NCBI RefSeq assembly: GCF_010731715.1
Contig: NZ_AP022587.1
Coordinates: 4,402,001-4,466,000 of the forward strand
Reading direction: 5' to 3'
Length of the DNA: 64,000 nucleotides
From: Mycobacterium stomatepiae
GTDB taxonomy: Bacteria; Actinomycetota; Actinomycetes; Mycobacteriales; Mycobacteriaceae
Every line of letters starts with the position of its first letter. Within the stretch, counting starts at the first letter, position 1. Below the pieces are notes generated by a model. The model saw only the letters and a list, made by a program, of their open reading frames with translations. It made no database searches and had not been told where the DNA came from. Shown piece after piece: positions 16,851 to 44,175 of the stretch. A program made the translations under genes and the position numbers.

Positions 16851-17420
16851 TTGTCATGGCGCATAATCACCGTTGTGCGGGAATCTCGCCGGCAGCGTGG
16901 CCGTTGCGTACTTCGCAGCTTTGCCGCGGCCGCAACGAGTTACGCGGTGCTCGTCGTGGTGGCATCGCACGCCGCGGCGGTGCCGGTCGGGGAGCAGGCG
17001 GAGCCGTGCCGCTCCGACCAGGTCGCCGTCACCGCTGGCCCGACGGAGGCCGCCGTCGGCCACCGTTCGGTGACCCTGATGTTCAGCCTCGCCGGCGGCG
17101 CGGAGCCGTGCACGCTGACCGGTTACCCCGCGATCGAGACGAGTGACGGCGGGCCGGACATTCACGCCAAGCCCACGCTGCGTGGCTACATGGGCGGGTT
17201 GCCCAACGACGGCGACGTCCCGCCCACCGTCACCCTGGCGCTGGCGGCACAGGGACAGGCAATCGTGGAGGGGGTGGCCGTCGACCGTGCGGGCAACCCG
17301 TGACCCACCTACACCGCGCTACAGGTCAACCCGCCTAATACGGTCATCGTGCTCACCGTGCCGGCCACCATCGACGCCTGCGAACTACAGGTGCATCCGG
17401 TCACCGCGTTGGAGCAGTAG
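16851..17420 (+). pseudogene. DUF4232 secreted protein with in-frame TGA
   Basis: The frame reads a signal-peptide-like N-terminus and a DUF4232 domain with cysteines in EPCRSDQ and EPCTLTGYP. It is stopped by TGA at 17301-17303, yet continues in the same frame for 39 more codons with the expected family ending (PTYTALQVNPP...TIDACELQVHPV) to TAG at 17418-17420. Relatives have a cysteine where the TGA stands, so one TGC to TGA change explains it. The start is TTG 16851 or, more likely, GTG 16875. If translated to the early stop, the product would be a truncated exported protein lacking two cysteines. Confidence 0.75.
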
Positions 17421-17423
17421 GGC

Positions 17424-17561
17424 CTAGTAACGGCTCGCCCGCTGCAGGCAATAGCCGACGGGCGGAGGCGGGTAGCTGACCCCGTTGACGCCCGCCGGGC
17501 AGTCGGAACTGTTTGTGGTGCCGTCGATGCACTGCACCACCTTCAGCTGCGGGTGCGGATC
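17424..17561 (-). pseudogene. 3' remnant of a small secreted protein gene
   Basis: About 45 codons in one minus-strand frame encode a cysteine- and proline-containing tail (DPHPQLKVVQCIDG, then SYPPPPVGYCLQ) ending at a stop at 17424-17426. Upstream the same frame continues only as nonsense out of frame with the dioxygenase gene, and no start codon fits. It looks like the end of a short exported mycobacterial protein whose 5' part was lost when the adjacent cluster arrived. Family assignment is by resemblance only. Confidence 0.5.
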
Positions 17562-17568
17562 CCTGGGT

Positions 17569-18612
17569 TTAGTCGTTCGCGGCCAACGCCCGACTGCTCT
17601 CGCGGTCGGTGCCGTCGGTGTTGACGACGAGTTCTTGGGCGCCACGCAGCTTGTGATTGATGTGCTGGCCGATGGTGATGGGGGGATACAGGGGTGAGGT
17701 GCCTGCGGGAACCAGGCTGGGCAACGGCGCGATGACGGCGTCGACGTTGCCGCCGGTGAAGAACGCCGCCGAGCGGCGGCGCCGGACGACGTTGTCGATG
17801 ATCGGCGGCTTGACCCGATGCAGAGTCGACCTCCAGGTGTCGTTGGTCCACCGTGCCATCGCGTCACCAAAGTTGATCAATAGTGCCCCGGGCGCAGGCG
17901 AGACGTCGCGCCAGGTGTGGTCGGGGCCTAAGACCTGAAGGCCTTTGACATCGTCGGCCCACAGGATCGTGAAAATGCCGAAGTCGGTGTGTTCCCCCAC
18001 GCCGATTAGATCGTTGTCGACGGTGACCTTTTCGCCGACGGGCAGCGCATAGTTGTTGAGCCGCAGGATGTATCGGGAATGGTCCAGATAGGGATCGAAG
18101 TATCCAGGTTCGAGGCTCAACGCGTTGGCAAAGATCTGCATCAGCAGCGTCGACGTCACTGTCATCTGGGAAAACCACGCCTCCGCCGCAGCCCGGAAGC
18201 CATCGGAGTCGTTGGGCCACGCGTTTTCTGGGTAATCTTTCGAGTCTAGGTCGGCGCCTGGATAGTCAGCCCTCGTGCTGCCGACGTTGAACGCTTCGAA
18301 AAAGTCGTTCAGCCGATGCGCTTTATCGACGCCAAGGCTCAGCGCTAATCGTTCGGACTTGGGCGGCGTGTAGCCGCGGTTGGTGGGAGACTGCAGCATC
18401 TTCTTGTACTCGATATCCCGGCTGAAAAACTTGTCCATCGCGTCAGCAAGTTGATCGCTGAGTCCGCTGGCAACCCCGTGGCCAACGATCTGAACGAAGC
18501 CGACAGTGCGAGCGGCAGCATCGATTTTGCGGGGTACCACGGCTTTCCGGTTGGGATTTGCGTCGTCCAGGTATGGCGAGATGTCGATTGTCGGGATGTC
18601 AAAGCCGTTCAT
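17569..18612 (-). CDS. 2-oxoglutarate/Fe(II) oxygenase, isopenicillin-N-synthase family
   Basis: A 347-residue cytoplasmic non-haem iron oxygenase. It has the N-terminal DIOX_N segment (IPTIDISPYL...GFVQIVGHGV) and the double-stranded beta-helix core with iron ligands H208, D210 (GEHTDFG) and H265 (STLHRV). The 2-oxoglutarate-binding R-x-S is present as RRS at 279-281. All catalytic residues are in place, so it should be active on a small molecule, but the substrate is not predictable. It is the last gene of a leftward set with the VOC and FAD-oxidase genes; an 80-bp gap precedes it. It is absent from this place in H37Rv as recalled. Confidence 0.9.
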   Translation of the reverse strand: MNGFDIPTIDISPYLDDANPNRKAVVPRKIDAAARTVGFVQIVGHGVASGLSDQLADAMDKFFSRDIEYKKMLQSPTNRGYTPPKSERLALSLGVDKAHRLNDFFEAFNVGSTRADYPGADLDSKDYPENAWPNDSDGFRAAAEAWFSQMTVTSTLLMQIFANALSLEPGYFDPYLDHSRYILRLNNYALPVGEKVTVDNDLIGVGEHTDFGIFTILWADDVKGLQVLGPDHTWRDVSPAPGALLINFGDAMARWTNDTWRSTLHRVKPPIIDNVVRRRRSAAFFTGGNVDAVIAPLPSLVPAGTSPLYPPITIGQHINHKLRGAQELVVNTDGTDRESSRALAAND

Positions 18613-18691
18613 AATGAAAATCTTTCAACCGGGGGAGAGGGAGAGAGTGCGTGCAGCAGTGCGCCTGGGCGCACGCCTTTTTGGGAGGAGT

Positions 18692-19064
18692 TCATATGTC
18701 GGGGCTGTCGGCGTCGTAGGCGATCAGCTGGATTTGGAATCCGAATTCGTCGGATAGCAGTGCGCTGCGCGCCTTGGCCGCTTCCAGCCGATGCGGTATG
18801 CGTTCAGCGGCAAGGCCGATCCGCAGCAATTCGGTGAACGTGTCGTCGACATCGTCGGCCGCCATGGCCAAGTGGGCCAGGCCATCGGTGGGTGATTCGA
18901 TCAGCTCGATCTTGAATTCGATCACTATCTGAGAGCATTACGATGCGGCGCGTCGGGTCTGAGCTCAAGGTTCCCCGGCGGCGCACCACCATGCCGAGTT
19001 CACAAAAGGTGGCGACCCGTTCGTCCAGATTCGTCACGTTGAGGGCAAGGTGATCGACCTTCAT
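18692..19064 (-). pseudogene. VOC-family protein with frameshift
   Basis: Two overlapping minus-strand frames together encode one VOC (glyoxalase/bleomycin-resistance fold) domain. The first, from ATG 19064, reads MKVDHLALNVTNLDERVATF to RIVMLSD. The second, from about 18925, reads IEFKIELIESP to the end at 18692. Removing one A near 18926 would restore a 123-residue protein with the typical junction RIVMLSDVIEFKIELIE. The ATG overlaps the FAD-oxidase stop (ATGA), so it was translationally coupled. Either a real +1 frameshift or a sequencing error is possible. Confidence 0.75.
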
Positions 19065-20386
19065 CTTATCGCTCGTGTCGTTACGAAAGCTGAGATTGGC
19101 CTGCCGGAGGCTGGCAGCTTTCCGGGATTGAGCAGGCCAAGGGGATCGTGTTGTGCGGATGCTGCTTGATAATGTTCGAGCCCACCGTGGCTGCCGACCA
19201 TCCACGTGTGCGGACTGACCACTCTGACTCCCAGCTCGCGCAGCGCGCCGATGCCTCGAGCGAGGGTAGCGTCGTCGATCCATTGCGAAAAGAGCAGTCC
19301 GGAAAAGCCCTTGCCGTACCCAGCGGGGGCATTGCCATCGAGGTGAATGCAGACCTCAGGCAATACCCGACGAACGTCCTCCTCGTGATCGATGATCGCG
19401 TTGCCCCTGATCTGCACCGCGGTTGTCCCCGGGCGCCCGCGGGCGACCATGACCGTGGTGTGGTTGTACACCGAACGCGAAATAGCCCCAATGGCTTTGA
19501 CATCGGTCGCAGTGACTTGTCCGCCGGCGGCGACAACGATGGCCCGCGCGGCGTCGACCTGGTCCACATCCAGGATCGTTCGCAGCAGCACAGCACCAAC
19601 CATTCCGCTGTGTTGCGGATAATGCCGGTATGCCGCCTCGTCGTCGACGCTGATCGCACGTGGCAGCTGGGGAAGATCCATCAACTGCTGGCCTGCATGT
19701 GCCGCTTGTTTCATGGTTGTGAACGACCCGAACAGGGCCGTGCGGTCGCGCTTTGCGCTGTGCCGCAGTGTCACCGTCGTGATCACACCGGTGGTACCGA
19801 ACGCGTGCAAATGGCGGCGAAGACCTTCGCCGCTGACCTGTAGTGGCTGGGGCTGGGGCTGGCATCCCACGATAGTGAGTTCATGCACCCAGCCGTCCCA
19901 GATGGAACCGTGCTCGATAGAGCCAATTCCCTGGTTGCCACCGGACAGAAAGCCGCCGATGGTGCTGGTAGCGGTTGAAGGCATGACCGCTACCTCGCGT
20001 CCGACAGCGGTGAGTTCGGATTCGAGTTGTTCGAACGTACATCCCGCTTCGGCGATCACGAATTCGTCATCGATGGAAAGCACGGTGCGACAGTCGGATA
20101 GATCCAACACGATCCCACCGTGCAGCGGCACCGCCTGCCCGTAATTGCCCGTCCCTCGCCCACGAGGGACTAGAGGTATTCGGTGTCGGTAGGCCACGGC
20201 GAGTATCGCTGGAATCTGCTCGCGATGTCTGGGCCGCACAACGACATCGGCGATGACGTCCGGAAGATCCCGGGCCAATATCGGTGAAAGCCATGCGAAG
20301 TCTTTCGACGCTCGCTGGCGGGCAGCAAGGTCGATCCGCACCGAGTCCTCGCCAGCTGCACCGACAAGCTCGTCTACGTAGTTCAT
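19061..20386 (-). CDS. FAD-linked oxidase/dehydrogenase, GlcD/VAO type
   Basis: A 441-residue flavoprotein with a PCMH-type FAD-binding domain: PLVPRGRGTGNYGQA binds the pyrophosphate, and TSTIGGFLSGGNQGIGS the flavin. The C-terminal substrate domain ends in HDPLGLLNPGKL, the usual family end. No signal peptide is seen and no cysteine/histidine pair for bicovalent FAD is evident. The ATG is chosen because the domain starts shortly after it and a promoter-like AT-rich region precedes it. Substrates of relatives are hydroxy acids or sugars; here it is open. It heads the unit FAD oxidase - VOC - dioxygenase. Confidence 0.88.
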   Translation of the reverse strand: MNYVDELVGAAGEDSVRIDLAARQRASKDFAWLSPILARDLPDVIADVVVRPRHREQIPAILAVAYRHRIPLVPRGRGTGNYGQAVPLHGGIVLDLSDCRTVLSIDDEFVIAEAGCTFEQLESELTAVGREVAVMPSTATSTIGGFLSGGNQGIGSIEHGSIWDGWVHELTIVGCQPQPQPLQVSGEGLRRHLHAFGTTGVITTVTLRHSAKRDRTALFGSFTTMKQAAHAGQQLMDLPQLPRAISVDDEAAYRHYPQHSGMVGAVLLRTILDVDQVDAARAIVVAAGGQVTATDVKAIGAISRSVYNHTTVMVARGRPGTTAVQIRGNAIIDHEEDVRRVLPEVCIHLDGNAPAGYGKGFSGLLFSQWIDDATLARGIGALRELGVRVVSPHTWMVGSHGGLEHYQAASAQHDPLGLLNPGKLPASGRPISAFVTTRAIR

Positions 20387-20402
20387 GGCCGCCCTATCAC
20401 AT

Positions 20403-20426
20403 ATAATACTGACTATTGTATACGAT
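20403..20426 (-). promoter_or_regulatory. Promoter/operator of the FAD-oxidase unit
   Basis: On the minus strand a TATTAT hexamer (20408-20403) lies about 17 nt before the FAD-oxidase ATG and would leave almost no leader. Just upstream is the near-palindrome ATTGTATACGAT (20415-20426), one mismatch, which resembles the GTATAC cores of GntR-type operators. No good -35 hexamer is visible, so control by an activator or repressor is suggested. Confidence 0.4.
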
Positions 20427-20457
20427 TTGCCGACCTGACGAAGTTCGGTGTGGTTTT

Positions 20458-21228
20458 TTATCGCTGACGCGCGGCGAAATGCTTGTCCGTCTCTGCGGCG
20501 AGTACTCCGGGGAGGGCGAGCTCTGGGCGGTAGAGCTGGTGGGCACGCGCGATTGCCTCGATCGCAGAGATTTCGAATTGCGGGATATCGGAACGCAGGA
20601 CAGTAGCAATAGAACTTGCCCACACTATCCGCGGAATTCCTACTAAAGCTATTGCACCACAGCACATTACGCATGGCTCGGCGGTGGAGTATAACGAGAC
20701 CTGGTCCCAGTCCGCGTTGCCGTGGCGGCTGATGTAATCGCTGATCGCCACCATTTCGCCATGTGATGTCGGGTTTGCCGAACGATTGTTTACGCCCTGT
20801 GCAAGCACCTCACCACTCGTGTGATCCACAATGACCGCCGCGAACGGGCGAGATGGATTGTTGTTCGCCAGCTCGATAGCTAGCCGCATGAACTGCTCGT
20901 GCCTGTGCAATTCCTCGGCGCCGGGGGTGGCTGCCAGTAGCGAGCGAGCGACCTGTTGGGCTTGAGGATCCCCGTCGAAAAGATACGGAAGGTCAAGGGG
21001 TGCGGTGGCGTCGACCGGGTGCGTTGTCGGCGAAGCCTTCGTGGCTCCATCGGTTCCGGAGCATGCGGCGGTAATCGCCCCGGCACCGATACCGGCGAGT
21101 CGCAAAAAGCGTCGTCGGGTGGAAGCTTCAGCGCTGGCCACAATCTTCTGCATTCTGCGGGGCCTCGGGCATACGGCCATCGTACCCAGCTGATCGGCGA
21201 CATCGGGGTGCTCGGACAGGTCCCGCAT
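20458..21228 (-). CDS. Tat-exported lipoprotein with nucleoside/guanine deaminase fold
   Basis: The cytidine/deoxycytidylate-deaminase-like domain (about residues 105-235) carries the zinc motifs HGE at 156-158 (the family norm is H[A/C/P]E) and PCVMC at 185-189, so the catalytic glutamate and three ligands are present. Before it is a twin-arginine segment TRRRFLRLAG (residues 37-46) and a lipobox ending at C56 (AACSG). This predicts folded export and lipid anchoring, unusual for a deaminase. The first 25 residues look non-native; ATG at 21180 or 21153 is the more likely start. It is upstream of the FAD-oxidase unit, same strand. Confidence 0.85.
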   Translation of the reverse strand: MRDLSEHPDVADQLGTMAVCPRPRRMQKIVASAEASTRRRFLRLAGIGAGAITAACSGTDGATKASPTTHPVDATAPLDLPYLFDGDPQAQQVARSLLAATPGAEELHRHEQFMRLAIELANNNPSRPFAAVIVDHTSGEVLAQGVNNRSANPTSHGEMVAISDYISRHGNADWDQVSLYSTAEPCVMCCGAIALVGIPRIVWASSIATVLRSDIPQFEISAIEAIARAHQLYRPELALPGVLAAETDKHFAARQR

Positions 21229-21281
21229 CCGAACTTGCTAGTCGTGAGAAACCGCAACGCAAGGCCTTAAGGTCGTAGCTG

Positions 21282-22904
21282 ATGTGTCGAGTAAGAGTTG
21301 CGGCCACGATGGCTGCCGTCGTTGTGCTGACGGTCGCGTCGACGGCCGGCTGTGGTGGCGGCGCGCTGAGCCCCGAACTGGTCGTGGTGAACGGCGGCGA
21401 ACCGCCCAACCCGCTGATACCGACCGGGACCAATGACAGCCTCGGCGGGCGGATCCTGGACCGGCTGTTCGCCGGTTTGGTGTCCTACGACGCCGACGGC
21501 AAACCGGCGCCGGAGGTCGCCCAGTCGATCGAGACCACCGACAACGTCAACTACCGGATCATCCTCAAACCCGGCTGGAAGTTCACCGACGGCTCCGCGG
21601 TGACGGCACACTCGTTCGTCGACGCATGGAACTACGGTGCTCTGAGTGCCAACGCCCTACTGCAGCAAGAGTTTTTCAGCCCGATCGCAGGATTCGACGA
21701 CGTCGCCGGGGCGCCGGGTGACGGCAGGCCAACCACGATGTCCGGCTTGCAGGTGGTCAACGATCTCGAGTTCACCGTGCGGCTCAAGGCGCCCACCGTC
21801 GATTTCAAATTGCGACTGGGCCACAGCGCGTTCTATCCCCTGCCGGACATGGCATTTCGCGACATGGCGGCCTTCGGGCGCAACCCGGTGGGCGACGGTC
21901 CCTATCGGCTGGCCGACAGTCCCGACGGGCCGGCCTGGGAGCACAACGTGAAGATCGACTTGAAACCCAATCCCGAGTATCACGGCAACCGCATGCCGCA
22001 CAACAAGGGCCTGAGGTTCGAGTTCTACGGCAACCTCGACACCGCCTATGCCGACCTGCTGTCCGGCAACCTCGATGTCCTGGACACCATTCCGTCCAGC
22101 GCGTTGACGATCTACAAGCGCGACCTGGGCGGCAACGCCGCCAGCGGACCGGTCGCGGTCAGCCAATCTCTCGACACTCCGCTGCGGCTGCCGCATTTCG
22201 GCGGTGAGGAGGGACGGCTGCGGCGGTTGGCCCTGTCGGCGGCCATCAACCGCCCGCAGATCTGTCAGCAGATTTTCAATGGCACCCGCAGCCCGGCCCG
22301 CGATTTCACCGCCCGCTCCCTGCCGGGGTTCGACCCGAACATCCCGGGAAACGACGCCCTGGACTTCAATCCCGAACGGGCACGGCAACTCTGGGCGCAG
22401 GCCAACGCGATCTCGCCGTGGAGCGGGCGATACGCCATCGCCTACAACGCCGACAGCGGCCATCAAGAGTGGGTGGACGCGGTGGCCAACAGCATCAAAA
22501 ACGTGCTCGGCATCGACGCCGCCGGCGCGCCGCAGCCCACCTTCGCGGGGTTCCGCACCCAGATCACCAATCGCACCATCGACACCGCCTTCCGTGCCGG
22601 CTGGATCGGTGACTATCCGTCGATGATCGAGTTCCTCGCCCCGCTGTACGCCACCGGCGCGGGATCCAACGACGTCGGATACTCCAGCCGAGAGTTCGAC
22701 GCCGGTCTCGCGGTCGCCGAGGCCGCGCCGAGCCTGCGGCAGGCTGACGTTCTGGTCAACGTCGCGCAGCGAATCCTGTTGCACGACATGCCCGCTGTGC
22801 CGCTCTGGTATTACATTGCCGTGATCGGGTGGTCGCCTCAGGTCGGCAAAGTCAAGGTCACGTGGAACGGGCTGCCCGACTACGAGAGCATCGTCAAGGC
22901 CTAA
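21282..22904 (+). CDS. dppA: Dipeptide/haem ABC transporter substrate-binding lipoprotein DppA
   Basis: A 540-residue extracytoplasmic solute-binding protein of family 5. The lipoprotein signal ends at STAGC near residue 24. The mature part has the family hallmarks of an N-terminal NPL...LFAGLVSYDADG region and LKPGWKFTDGSAVTAHSFVDAW. M. tuberculosis DppA binds peptides and is implicated in haem uptake. It is the first gene of a compact dppABCD operon, with dppB starting 3 nt after its stop. The ATG at 21282 gives a length equal to Rv3666c within one residue. Confidence 0.95.
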   Translation: MCRVRVAATMAAVVVLTVASTAGCGGGALSPELVVVNGGEPPNPLIPTGTNDSLGGRILDRLFAGLVSYDADGKPAPEVAQSIETTDNVNYRIILKPGWKFTDGSAVTAHSFVDAWNYGALSANALLQQEFFSPIAGFDDVAGAPGDGRPTTMSGLQVVNDLEFTVRLKAPTVDFKLRLGHSAFYPLPDMAFRDMAAFGRNPVGDGPYRLADSPDGPAWEHNVKIDLKPNPEYHGNRMPHNKGLRFEFYGNLDTAYADLLSGNLDVLDTIPSSALTIYKRDLGGNAASGPVAVSQSLDTPLRLPHFGGEEGRLRRLALSAAINRPQICQQIFNGTRSPARDFTARSLPGFDPNIPGNDALDFNPERARQLWAQANAISPWSGRYAIAYNADSGHQEWVDAVANSIKNVLGIDAAGAPQPTFAGFRTQITNRTIDTAFRAGWIGDYPSMIEFLAPLYATGAGSNDVGYSSREFDAGLAVAEAAPSLRQADVLVNVAQRILLHDMPAVPLWYYIAVIGWSPQVGKVKVTWNGLPDYESIVKA

Positions 22905-41176: not shown

Positions 41177-42934
41177 TCACATGATTTCGCTGGCCACATC
41201 TTCGATGGCCGGCCGTGGTGGCGAAACCGTAGGCGGGGCAGCAAGATTCAGCGGCCGGGCCAGCTGAGTGGGCGCGGCGCGACCGCGTAGCTCGACAACC
41301 TCGCCGACGTCCCAGCACAAGGCTTCGGCGTCCAGCGCGCCACTCACCGCGATCGCCGAGGCCAGCACGTGGCCGGCCTCGAGCTTGGCCAGCTCGGTCA
41401 GCCGCGCGGCCTCGTTGACCGGGTCGCCTATCACGGTGTACTCGAAACGGGCCTGCGCGCCGATATGGCCGGCGATGGCCCGGCCTGAGGACACCCCGAC
41501 GCCGAACTCGGCCGCGCCGATCACCGGCAGGAGTTCGTCGTGCAGCTCGCGGGCGGCCGCCAGCGCTCCGCCGGAGGCGTCCGGGTGTTCGATCGGTGCG
41601 CCGAAGATGGCCAGCGCGGCGTCACCCTGGAACTTGTTGACGAAGCCGCCGTGCCGGCCGACGGTGTCGACCACCACCCGGAAGAACTCGTTGAGCAGGT
41701 GGACCACCTCGGCGGGCGGCCGGGTCGCGGCCAGCTGCGTCGAGCCGACCAGGTCGACGAACAGCACCGCGACGTCTCGTTCCTGGCCGCCCAGCTCGGT
41801 GCCGCGCTCTAGCGCCCGGCGGGCCACGTCTTCGCCGACGTAGCGGCCGAACAGGTCGCGCAGCCGTTGCCGCTCGGACAGGTCGCGAACCATGTCGTTG
41901 AATCCGGCCTGCAGCAGGCCCAGCTCGCTGGCGTCGTAGATCTGCATGTGCGCGTTGTAGTTACCGCGCTGCACCTCCGAGAGCGCCCAGCGCAGCTGGC
42001 GCAGTGGGTCGGCGATCGACATCGCCACCAGCAGGGTGCTGATGAGCCCAACGCCCAGCGCTGTGAGGGCCAGCAGCAGGATCGGATTGAACAGGCTCTC
42101 CGGCGCGGCATGCAGCAGCGATACCTTGTCGGCCACCACCGCCAGCACGATCGCCAGCAGCGGCACCGCGGTGGAGAGCATCCACGTCAGGATCTGGCGC
42201 AGGATGACGCCCGGCGCCCTGACGTTCTCCGGCACGCCGCTGCGCAGGGCGGCGACGGCCACCGGACGCAGTACCCGTTCGGATTGCAGGTAGCCGATGA
42301 TCGCGGTAGCCGCCGCACCCAACGCGGTGGCGACCGTGACGACGGGCGCGGCGAACCGGGCCACCGACCAGCTGGCCACGACGAACACCACGCCACCGAT
42401 GCACCAGTACACGACCGTGCTCAGGGTGCGGTAGTACGGCATGCGCAGGGCGCGGCTGCGGGCCAGCTCGGTGGCGGCCGGATCGGCCTCGGCGAGCATG
42501 TTGTCGCGGCGCTGCCAGCGGAACACCGGCATCAGCAGTCTGAGGTTGACCACCACGCCGACGAGAAACAGGATCACCAACGAGCTTGCGAAGATCGCCA
42601 GGTTGAGCGTCGGCAGATCCTGCAGTTGAATACGGTCCTGGGGTGGGAGGCCGTAGCGCAGGAAGCCGAGCACGAACAGTGCGCCGATGATGTCGGCCTG
42701 CAGCATGCTCAGCGAGAACAGCGGCCACGGAGTGCGCACGACCCACCGGACGAACGCGCTGATTCGCCCGGGCAGATCACCCGGTGTTGGCACCAACCCA
42801 CCGTATCGGTCGGCGGGGACATGCCGGTAACCCTTAATGGCATCGGCAAGTCGCCGGTTCCTGGCGAAACGGCGCAGAAGATCACCGAATTGTAGCGATA
42901 CGGTAGCCGTCGGGTAGACGTCGGTCTGTCTCAC
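41177..42934 (-). CDS. Membrane class III adenylate cyclase with HAMP domain (Rv3645-like)
   Basis: About 585 residues from GTG 42934; the M. tuberculosis protein is 549, so the real start may lie about 36 codons further in. Six membrane helices are followed by a HAMP linker (ADPLRQLRWALSEVQRGNY) and a cyclase domain. The domain has metal aspartates in LFVDLVGST and FQGDAALAIFG, the substrate lysine in VNKFQGD, and DPVNEAARL with the transition-state residues. It makes cAMP for Crp and the acetyltransferase that controls Acs. It is convergent with topA and divergent from the clamp-loader gene. Confidence 0.93.
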   Translation of the reverse strand: MRQTDVYPTATVSLQFGDLLRRFARNRRLADAIKGYRHVPADRYGGLVPTPGDLPGRISAFVRWVVRTPWPLFSLSMLQADIIGALFVLGFLRYGLPPQDRIQLQDLPTLNLAIFASSLVILFLVGVVVNLRLLMPVFRWQRRDNMLAEADPAATELARSRALRMPYYRTLSTVVYWCIGGVVFVVASWSVARFAAPVVTVATALGAAATAIIGYLQSERVLRPVAVAALRSGVPENVRAPGVILRQILTWMLSTAVPLLAIVLAVVADKVSLLHAAPESLFNPILLLALTALGVGLISTLLVAMSIADPLRQLRWALSEVQRGNYNAHMQIYDASELGLLQAGFNDMVRDLSERQRLRDLFGRYVGEDVARRALERGTELGGQERDVAVLFVDLVGSTQLAATRPPAEVVHLLNEFFRVVVDTVGRHGGFVNKFQGDAALAIFGAPIEHPDASGGALAAARELHDELLPVIGAAEFGVGVSSGRAIAGHIGAQARFEYTVIGDPVNEAARLTELAKLEAGHVLASAIAVSGALDAEALCWDVGEVVELRGRAAPTQLARPLNLAAPPTVSPPRPAIEDVASEIM

Positions 42935-42948
42935 TAGTGTTGCCGGTG

Positions 42949-44175
42949 ATGTCCGGAGTGTTTACGCGGCTGGTAGGCCAGGAGGCCGTCGAGGCCGCCC
43001 TGCTCGCCGCCGCGAGAGCCGCGCGAAGTGATCCCGGTCACAGTGATGGGGCCCACGGGACTATGACACATGCGTGGCTGATCACCGGCCCGCCGGGGTC
43101 GGGGCGTTCGATCGCTGCGCTGCGCTTCGCGGCCGCGCTGCAGTGCACATCCGCCGCCGAGGACGGTGGCCCCGGGTGCGGGCAGTGCCGGGCCTGCACG
43201 ACGACGATGGCCGGCACCCACGCCGACGTCCGCCGGGTGATCCCCGAAGGCTTGTCCATCGGCGTGGACGAGATGCGCGCCATTGTGCAGACCGCGTCGC
43301 GGCGCCCAACCACCGGCAACTGGCAGATCGTGGTCGTCGAGGATGCCGACCGGCTGACCGAAGGTGCCGCGAACGCGCTGCTGAAGGTGGTCGAGGAACC
43401 GCCGCCGTCGACGGTGTTCCTGCTGTGTGCGCCGTCAGTGGATCCCGAGGACATCGCGGTGACGCTGCGGTCGAGGTGCCGGCACGTCGCGTTGGTGACC
43501 CCGTCGACCGAGTCGATCGCGCAGGTGCTGATCGACAGCGACGGGCTCAGCGCCGACACGGCGAGCTGGGCGGCATCGGTCAGCGGTGGTCACGTGGGGC
43601 GGGCGCGCCGGCTGGCGACGGATCCCGAGGCCCGGGAGCGGCGCGAACGCGCGCTGAGCCTGGTGCGCGATGCTGCGACTCCGGCGCGCGCCTACGCCGC
43701 CGCCGAAGAGTTGGTCGCCGCGGCCGAAACCGAGGCCACCGTATTGACCGCTGACCGCGCCGAGGCCGAGAACGAGGAGCTGCGGACTGCACTGGGGGCC
43801 GGCGGCACCGGTAAGGGCACCGCGGGGGCTATGCGGGGCGCCACGGGTGCGATCAAGGATCTCGAGCGGCGGCAGAAATCCCGTCAGACCAGGGCCTCGC
43901 GCGACGCGCTGGACCGGGCGCTGATCGACTTGGCGACCTACTTCCGCGATGCGCTGGTCGTTTCCGCGCAAGCGGGTGAGGTACGGGCCAACCACCCGGA
44001 CATGGCCGAACGGGTCACGGCGTTGGCCGCGCATGCCCCACCCGAGCGGCTGCTGCGCTGCATCGAGGCCGTGCTGGAATGCCGCGAAGCGCTGGCGGTC
44101 AACGTCAAGCCCAAGTTCGCCGTCGACGCGATGGTGGCCACCATCGGGGTGGAACTGAAGACTGAACGGGATTGA
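42949..44175 (+). CDS. DNA polymerase III delta-prime/tau-like subunit (Rv3644c-like)
   Basis: A 408-residue AAA+ clamp-loader-like protein. It has GPPGSGRS at the Walker A place (the lysine is arginine, as in delta-prime), cysteines in GCGQCRACTTT for a zinc module, and SRC (SRCRHVALV) for the arginine-finger motif. The missing P-loop lysine indicates a non-hydrolysing delta-prime (HolB) role in the replisome. ATG 42949 is used; TTG 42937 is an alternative. It precedes a tRNA gene. Confidence 0.88.
   Translation: MSGVFTRLVGQEAVEAALLAAARAARSDPGHSDGAHGTMTHAWLITGPPGSGRSIAALRFAAALQCTSAAEDGGPGCGQCRACTTTMAGTHADVRRVIPEGLSIGVDEMRAIVQTASRRPTTGNWQIVVVEDADRLTEGAANALLKVVEEPPPSTVFLLCAPSVDPEDIAVTLRSRCRHVALVTPSTESIAQVLIDSDGLSADTASWAASVSGGHVGRARRLATDPEARERRERALSLVRDAATPARAYAAAEELVAAAETEATVLTADRAEAENEELRTALGAGGTGKGTAGAMRGATGAIKDLERRQKSRQTRASRDALDRALIDLATYFRDALVVSAQAGEVRANHPDMAERVTALAAHAPPERLLRCIEAVLECREALAVNVKPKFAVDAMVATIGVELKTERD

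What the first reader, a model, noticed from the sequence alone, without database searches (positions are those of the whole stretch)
17569..21228. Accessory enzyme set: 2OG-Fe(II) oxygenase, VOC protein, FAD-linked oxidase and exported deaminase
Four minus-strand genes sit between acs and dppA, where H37Rv has none as recalled. Two oxidative enzymes of different chemistry, a VOC-fold protein and a zinc deaminase outside the membrane suggest a small-molecule pathway, catabolic or biosynthetic, that I cannot match to a known cluster. The FAD-oxidase and VOC genes are coupled by ATGA. Motifs of all but the VOC protein are intact. The substrate and even the order of reactions are unknown.
Basis: partly seen in the sequence, partly recalled or inferred. 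Interest (0 to 1): 0.75.

Follow-up and report, generated by a model that had tools for sequence, protein, structure and literature searches.

The report
Acquired N-heterocycle oxidation gene set
A mycobacterium has picked up a block of four neighbouring genes, and relatives of two of them often sit beside genes for taking up and deaminating DNA-base-like molecules, so the block probably helps break down such a ring compound, although one of the four genes is broken in this genome.

Summary
The four genes exist, run in one direction with gaps of at most 79 bases, and fill a foreign 3.76-kb block (17550-21309; GC 60.8% against 66.5% for the window) that cut off a membrane-protein gene still whole in the closest relative examined. 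One correction: the VOC gene is frameshifted; 47 codons and, in another frame, 74 codons resemble VOC proteins. VOC and FAD genes are truly linked: fused in two natural proteins and close together in three other mycobacterial loci. 2OG oxygenase, FAD oxidase and VOC recur together beside a nucleoside hydrolase and an ABC importer in one other mycobacterium (L094). Relatives of the 2OG enzyme lie within 6 kb of nucleobase permeases, deaminases or a nucleoside hydrolase in 21 of 32 loci (0 of 15 controls; search seeds came mostly from those loci). The FAD enzyme's nearest solved structure is a folate-catabolism flavin oxygenase; the 2OG enzyme's is thymine hydroxylase, tied with others. The deaminase was not beside the other three in either other locus examined. 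Best reading: oxidative breakdown of a nucleobase- or pteridine-like ring; exact substrate unknown.

The parts
20458..21228 (-). Probably exported zinc-dependent deaminase of the cytidine/guanine deaminase (CDA) fold; longest ORF 256 aa, probable true start 21153 (231 aa); Tat-like RRRFLRL and lipobox-like TAAC at the N-terminus
   Evidence: Pfam PF00383 E 7e-21; HGE and both Cys of PCxxC invariant in 18 aligned sequences, own included; N-terminal signal shared by close relatives (by eye)
19061..20386 (-). FAD-linked oxidase/oxygenase (FAD_binding_4), 441 aa
18692..19064 (-). VOC-family metalloenzyme gene, frameshifted near 18916-18930; ORF from ATG 19064 ends at 18804 after 86 codons
   Evidence: Two pieces searched apart: 47 aa 58% and 74 aa 53% identical to the intact VOC of L061; H/E/H/Q ligand pattern (by eye) and YDxDSPD ending kept
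17569..18612 (-). Fe(II)/2-oxoglutarate oxygenase of the thymine-hydroxylase/isopenicillin N synthase type, 347 aa
17550..21309 (.). Foreign block holding all four genes (GC 60.8% over 17430-21260, window 66.5%)
   Evidence: Homology to the closest relative examined (L111) stops at 17549 and resumes at 21310; composition
17424..17549 (-). Remnant: last ~41 codons of a 271-aa membrane-protein-like gene whose front part the block replaced
   Evidence: Matches the C-terminus of L111:3074-3889

Best explanation
The block is a horizontally acquired catabolic operon (deaminase, FAD enzyme, VOC enzyme, 2OG oxygenase) for a nitrogen-containing ring compound of nucleobase or pteridine type. Proposed working: (1) the lipoprotein deaminase removes an exocyclic amino group from the ring outside the membrane; (2) the product enters the cell by a carrier not in the block (the genome has one NCS1 nucleobase permease elsewhere); (3) the 2OG oxygenase hydroxylates or dealkylates a substituent on the ring, as thymine hydroxylase does; (4) the FAD enzyme oxidises the ring or its oxidised side group; (5) the VOC metalloenzyme acts on the FAD enzyme's product, for example by opening or rearranging it. 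Shown by sequence: gene layout, foreign origin, intact catalytic motifs in the 2OG enzyme and the deaminase and an intact FAD-binding family match, recurrence of 2OG + FAD + VOC, and neighbourhood with nucleobase genes. Inferred: substrate class, direction, order of steps, location of the deaminase. Because the VOC gene is frameshifted here, its step is probably lost in this strain, unless the frameshift is an assembly error.
For: Layout and origin. FAD-VOC link: fusions P0012 and P0013 and loci L061, L062, L094. 2OG-FAD-VOC with nucleoside hydrolase, ABC importer and GntR regulator in L094. 2OG relatives: nucleobase gene within 6 kb in 21 of 32 loci (15 of 26 without the loci that gave seeds), 0 of 15 controls. 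FAD relatives, 9 loci outside the own genome: an ABC binding protein in 9 of 9 (one family in 7, an NMT1-type one in 2), CodA-like deaminase in 4, guanine-deaminase-like enzyme in 2, 2OG in 3, VOC in 3 (names). Structures: 6v42 is titled a flavin oxygenase of folate catabolism; T7H is the top 2OG match, and its residues R190, Y217 and F292, critical for the ring (PMC4787775, abstract and passages), correspond to R184, F211, F285.
Confidence: 0.53

Rival explanations
1. Only the FAD, VOC and 2OG genes form a pathway; the deaminase is a passenger with its own job (for example scavenging nucleobases outside the cell) that happened to arrive in the same block.
For: Deaminase relatives in G080 and G245 sit beside acyl-CoA-type genes (by eye) without FAD, VOC or 2OG; the trio recurs without it in L094.
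Against: All four genes share one GC level (60.3-61.6%), one strand and short gaps; FAD loci elsewhere often carry a deaminase of another fold (6 of 9), so a deaminase fits the theme.
Confidence: 0.25
2. The set makes or tailors a secondary metabolite; isopenicillin N synthase-like oxygenases and FAD-linked oxidases are common tailoring enzymes.
For: Family-level resemblance to biosynthetic 2OG enzymes (IPNS, TropC, SpoC).
Against: No NRPS, PKS, carrier or export gene in the block; relatives sit with importers, permeases, nucleoside hydrolase and deaminases.
Confidence: 0.1
3. The block is a dying remnant: the frameshift has killed the VOC step and the rest has no present function.
For: VOC frameshift; of 39 neighbouring genes compared with the relative, 2 were flagged for a possible frame change, so breaks are uncommon in this stretch and this one may be real.
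Against: The 74 codons after the break keep their ligands and lack stops, and the other genes are open, so any decay is recent; an assembly error is not excluded.
Confidence: 0.2

Closest known systems
Flavin oxygenase of folate catabolism (PDB 6v42/6v43)
   Different: About 30% identical; no folate gene was recognised in the block; whether it acts on a pteridine is untested; no paper naming 6V42 or describing it was found in the library
Fungal thymine 7-hydroxylase (T7H, PDB 5c3p-5c3s)
   Same: Iron ligands, 2-oxoglutarate Arg/Ser, stacking Phe, Tyr/Phe lid, Arg near the ring
   Different: 29% identical; T7H's E122 and N294 not kept; bacterial; neighbours are permeases and deaminases of several base types, not thymine genes specifically
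Guanine/cytosine/TadA-type deaminases (CDA fold)
   Same: HGE and PCxxC zinc motifs
   Different: Carries an export-like signal; belongs to a small family of about 25 close relatives; best solved relative only 44.8 bits
FAD-VOC-ABC importer loci of Mycobacterium sp. PO1 and M. vanbaalenii BC8_1 (L061, L062)
   Same: FAD enzyme 57% and 55% identical; VOC pieces 47-58% identical
   Different: They have an ABC importer and GntR-type regulator (by reading), a guanine-deaminase-like amidohydrolase 4-7 kb away, and no 2OG match within the 10 kb held on each side; the window has the 2OG gene and a different kind of deaminase

Membership tests
Thymine 7-hydroxylase | 2-His-1-Asp iron site and Arg/Ser 2-oxoglutarate site | tested here: met
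   H208, D210, H265, R279, S281
Thymine 7-hydroxylase | R190, Y217 (or Phe), F292 around the base | tested here: met
   R184, F211, F285 by alignment; importance of the T7H residues from PMC4787775 passages
Thymine 7-hydroxylase | E122 and N294 polar contacts to the base | tested here: not met
   Asn109 (by eye) and Gly287 at these places
Thymine 7-hydroxylase | Turns thymine into 5-hydroxymethyluracil and beyond | not testable with these tools
   Needs an enzyme assay
Folate-catabolism flavin oxygenase (6v42) | Same full-length fold and sequence family | tested here: met
Folate-catabolism flavin oxygenase (6v42) | Acts on folate or a pterin | not testable with these tools
   No substrate data
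Folate-catabolism flavin oxygenase (6v42) | Neighbouring folate or pterin catabolic genes | tested here: inconclusive
   Guanine-deaminase-like amidohydrolases near L061/L062 could act on guanine or pterin; nothing specific to folate was recognised
CDA-fold zinc deaminase | H-x-E and PCxxC motifs | tested here: met
   H131-G-E133, C161 and C164 invariant, P160 nearly so, in 18 sequences
CDA-fold zinc deaminase | Export as Tat lipoprotein (this subfamily) | tested here: inconclusive
   RR and AAC motifs read by eye; a weak Tat-signal Pfam match below cut-off; no predictor was run
VOC metalloenzyme | One open frame with two modules and metal ligands | tested here: not met
   Both halves and the H/E/H/Q pattern are present but in two frames

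The most novel reading that the evidence does not exclude
Actinobacteria hold an undescribed modular oxidative pathway for modified nucleobases or pteridines: a thymine-hydroxylase-like 2OG enzyme and a folate-oxygenase-like FAD enzyme with its own VOC partner oxidise and open the ring, while the deamination module is interchangeable (CodA-, ADA- or guanine-deaminase-like inside the cell, or an exported CDA-fold lipoprotein as here).
Probability: 0.3. Interest if true: 0.7.

Novelty: new variant of a known kind. Interest (0 to 1): 0.48.

Why it matters
If right, it gives a testable substrate class to families now named only by fold (isopenicillin N synthase-like dioxygenase, FAD-binding oxidoreductase, VOC protein, nucleoside deaminase) that occur in several actinobacterial families, and it would add a bacterial oxygen-dependent route for base-like rings. 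It also shows a gain of a pathway, with a gene cut at the entry point, between two loci that lie side by side in other mycobacteria.

Tried and rejected

Led nowhere: literature searches on 6V42, folate catabolism, bacterial thymine hydroxylase and 2OG-nucleobase clusters listed no paper on this gene set (I saw listings only); the one paper I read in passages is PMC4787775. Flanking repeats: none convincing at the block edges. PDB search with an intact VOC relative: best E 0.0088, no guide to its reaction. NCBIfam had no match for the 2OG enzyme. In one search the L120 query gave no family because I gave the wrong strand; one search shows the guanine-deaminase-like match there on the minus strand (61% over 458 residues).
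Full report
What is there. Between acs and dppA the window carries four minus-strand genes. In the likely order of transcription they are a deaminase (20458-21228; probable start 21153), an FAD-linked enzyme (19061-20386), a VOC gene (18692-19064) and a 2OG-Fe(II) oxygenase (17569-18612). The gap from deaminase to FAD gene is 71 bases; FAD stop and VOC start overlap as ATGA; VOC to 2OG is 79 bases. Pfam supports three of them strongly; the second VOC piece matches the glyoxalase family only weakly (E 0.0017, below cut-off) and the first not at all.

The VOC gene is broken. The frame that starts at 19064 resembles VOC proteins for 47 codons and then leaves them; it stops after 86 codons. Another 74 codons lie in a second frame, from about 18916 to the stop at 18692. 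The pieces are 47-58% identical to the intact VOC of L061 and L062. The second piece keeps its ligand pattern and has no stop, so the break is recent or an assembly error. Of 39 genes of the relative G001 that could be compared with the window, 2 were flagged for a possible frame change.

The block is foreign. Its GC is 60.8% (17430-21260) against 66.5% for the window; the four genes lie at 60.3-61.6%. In G001, the closest by dppA (89% identity) of the 37 genomes searched, acs is followed by a DUF4232-like gene, a 271-aa membrane-protein-like gene and dppA. Homology with the window stops at 17549 and resumes at 21310. The last 41 or so codons of the 271-aa gene remain in the window at 17424-17549. 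So 3.76 kb stand where the relative has about 750 bases. Of the 9 genomes with a dppA match at E up to 1e-120 (own included), none of the other 8 matched the block in the stretch held. H37Rv was not tested.

How rare are the genes? In 297 genomes drawn from the genus (own included), the FAD family was found in 4 at E up to 1e-30, the deaminase family in 3 at 1e-25 and the 2OG family in 26 at 1e-60. At these thresholds only the own genome has all three; G079 and G107 have FAD and 2OG. The VOC family was not searched across genomes. A scan of named genomes for close FAD relatives found two (Mycobacterium sp. PO1, M. vanbaalenii BC8_1).

FAD and VOC belong together. Among the protein hits for the FAD enzyme, P0012 and P0013 are 573-aa fusions with the VOC domain in front. 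In L061 and L062 the order, by reading the ORFs, is ABC binding protein, FAD gene, GntR-type regulator, ABC ATPase, permease, VOC. In L094 the run is nucleoside hydrolase, ABC binding protein, ATPase, permease, 2OG, GntR, FAD, VOC: the same trio as in the window, with a nucleoside hydrolase at the other end of the cluster; its FAD and VOC proteins are remoter (29% and 36% to the window's). In L055 and L058, from another family of the order, FAD and 2OG genes are again about 1 kb apart, with (by reading) an XRE-cupin regulator, a SnoaL-like gene and an importer.

Each FAD locus has an importer, and two thirds have a deaminase. I took the 5 non-own FAD places at E up to 1e-60, the 3 non-own places and both (one shares its contig length with the G202 contig, so counted once): 9 loci. 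An ABC binding protein is in 9 of 9: of one family in 7, of the NMT1/THI5 type in L055 and L058 (3 of the 9 loci gave the seeds). A CodA-like amidohydrolase is in 4, a guanine-deaminase-like amidohydrolase in 2, 2OG in 3, VOC in 3. NCBIfam names these deaminases mostly below its own cut-offs; the L061 guanine deaminase passes one (364 against 351 bits) and the L093 adenosine-deaminase-like protein, from a 2OG locus, passes one (226.1 against 216.6).

The 2OG family often keeps company with nucleobase genes. I examined 32 loci: 27 from mycobacteria (27 of the 28 non-own rows) and 5 from other families. With a strict rule (at least 40% identity, half the length, within 6 kb) 21 of 32 have an NCS1 or NCS2 permease, an ADA-, CodA- or guanine-deaminase-like enzyme, or a nucleoside hydrolase; 11 have none. 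Of 15 control loci around remoter 2OG paralogues 0 do by the strict rule and 5 by a weak one, all NCS1; five 20-kb pieces of the G001 contig orthologous to the window had no seed match. Caveats: all seeds but the guanine deaminase came from loci in the set. Without the 6 loci that gave them the count is 15 of 26. A 40% rule favours the focal side, and related species repeat the same locus.

The deaminase. It belongs to a small family of CDA-fold proteins with export-like N-termini (roughly P0244-P0270; two named as Mycobacterium MAG proteins). Its two other mycobacterial loci above threshold lack FAD, VOC and 2OG matches. It joins the set by shared GC, strand and spacing only, and by analogy: other FAD and 2OG loci carry deaminases of a different fold. 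I read this as a swap of the deamination step to an enzyme outside the membrane; that is inference.

Mechanism. My proposal is deamination outside, uptake by a carrier elsewhere in the genome (one NCS1 permease at 394595; no match to the L094-type binding protein; NCS2 not searched), oxygenation by the 2OG enzyme, oxidation by the FAD enzyme and a VOC step on its product. Order and substrate are inferred. Pteridine is favoured by 6v42, purine or pyrimidine by the neighbours; both are flat nitrogen rings.

Verdict. Real, foreign, and a coherent set for three genes of four, with one gene broken. I file it as a new variant of nucleobase-like ring catabolism, not a new kind of system. Searches of the held library listed no paper on it, which does not show that none exists.

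Noticed in passing
window 16887-17420: The DUF4232-like gene beside acs carries an in-frame TGA at 17301-17303; the relative G001 has one open frame of 180 aa there.
   Followed up: partly
window 42687-44160: The orthologue of a 489-aa ORF of G001 shows its first 47 codons in another frame (87% identity), a possible frame change.
   Followed up: no
L090, L092, L093, L098, L123 (mycobacteria): A recurring cluster: XRE-cupin regulator, NCS1 permease, two different 2OG oxygenases and an adenosine-deaminase-like enzyme. It looks like a base-oxidation cluster in its own right.
   Followed up: partly
L091, L095, L099, L122, L126-L129 (mycobacteria): A second recurring cluster: CodA-like amidohydrolase, ABC binding protein and two 2OG oxygenases.
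   Followed up: partly
L056:7729-12178 (G060): 2OG oxygenase with NCS1 permease, adenosine-deaminase-like enzyme and a Rieske-type oxygenase, which recalls N-demethylation of methylated purines (recalled, not tested).
   Followed up: no
L151:5659-7649: 8-oxoguanine-deaminase-like and creatininase-like genes (both below NCBIfam cut-offs) beside an FAD-family locus.
   Followed up: no
L120:9423-12049: Two guanine-deaminase-like stretches (61% and 26%) in a row beside a 2OG oxygenase.
   Followed up: no
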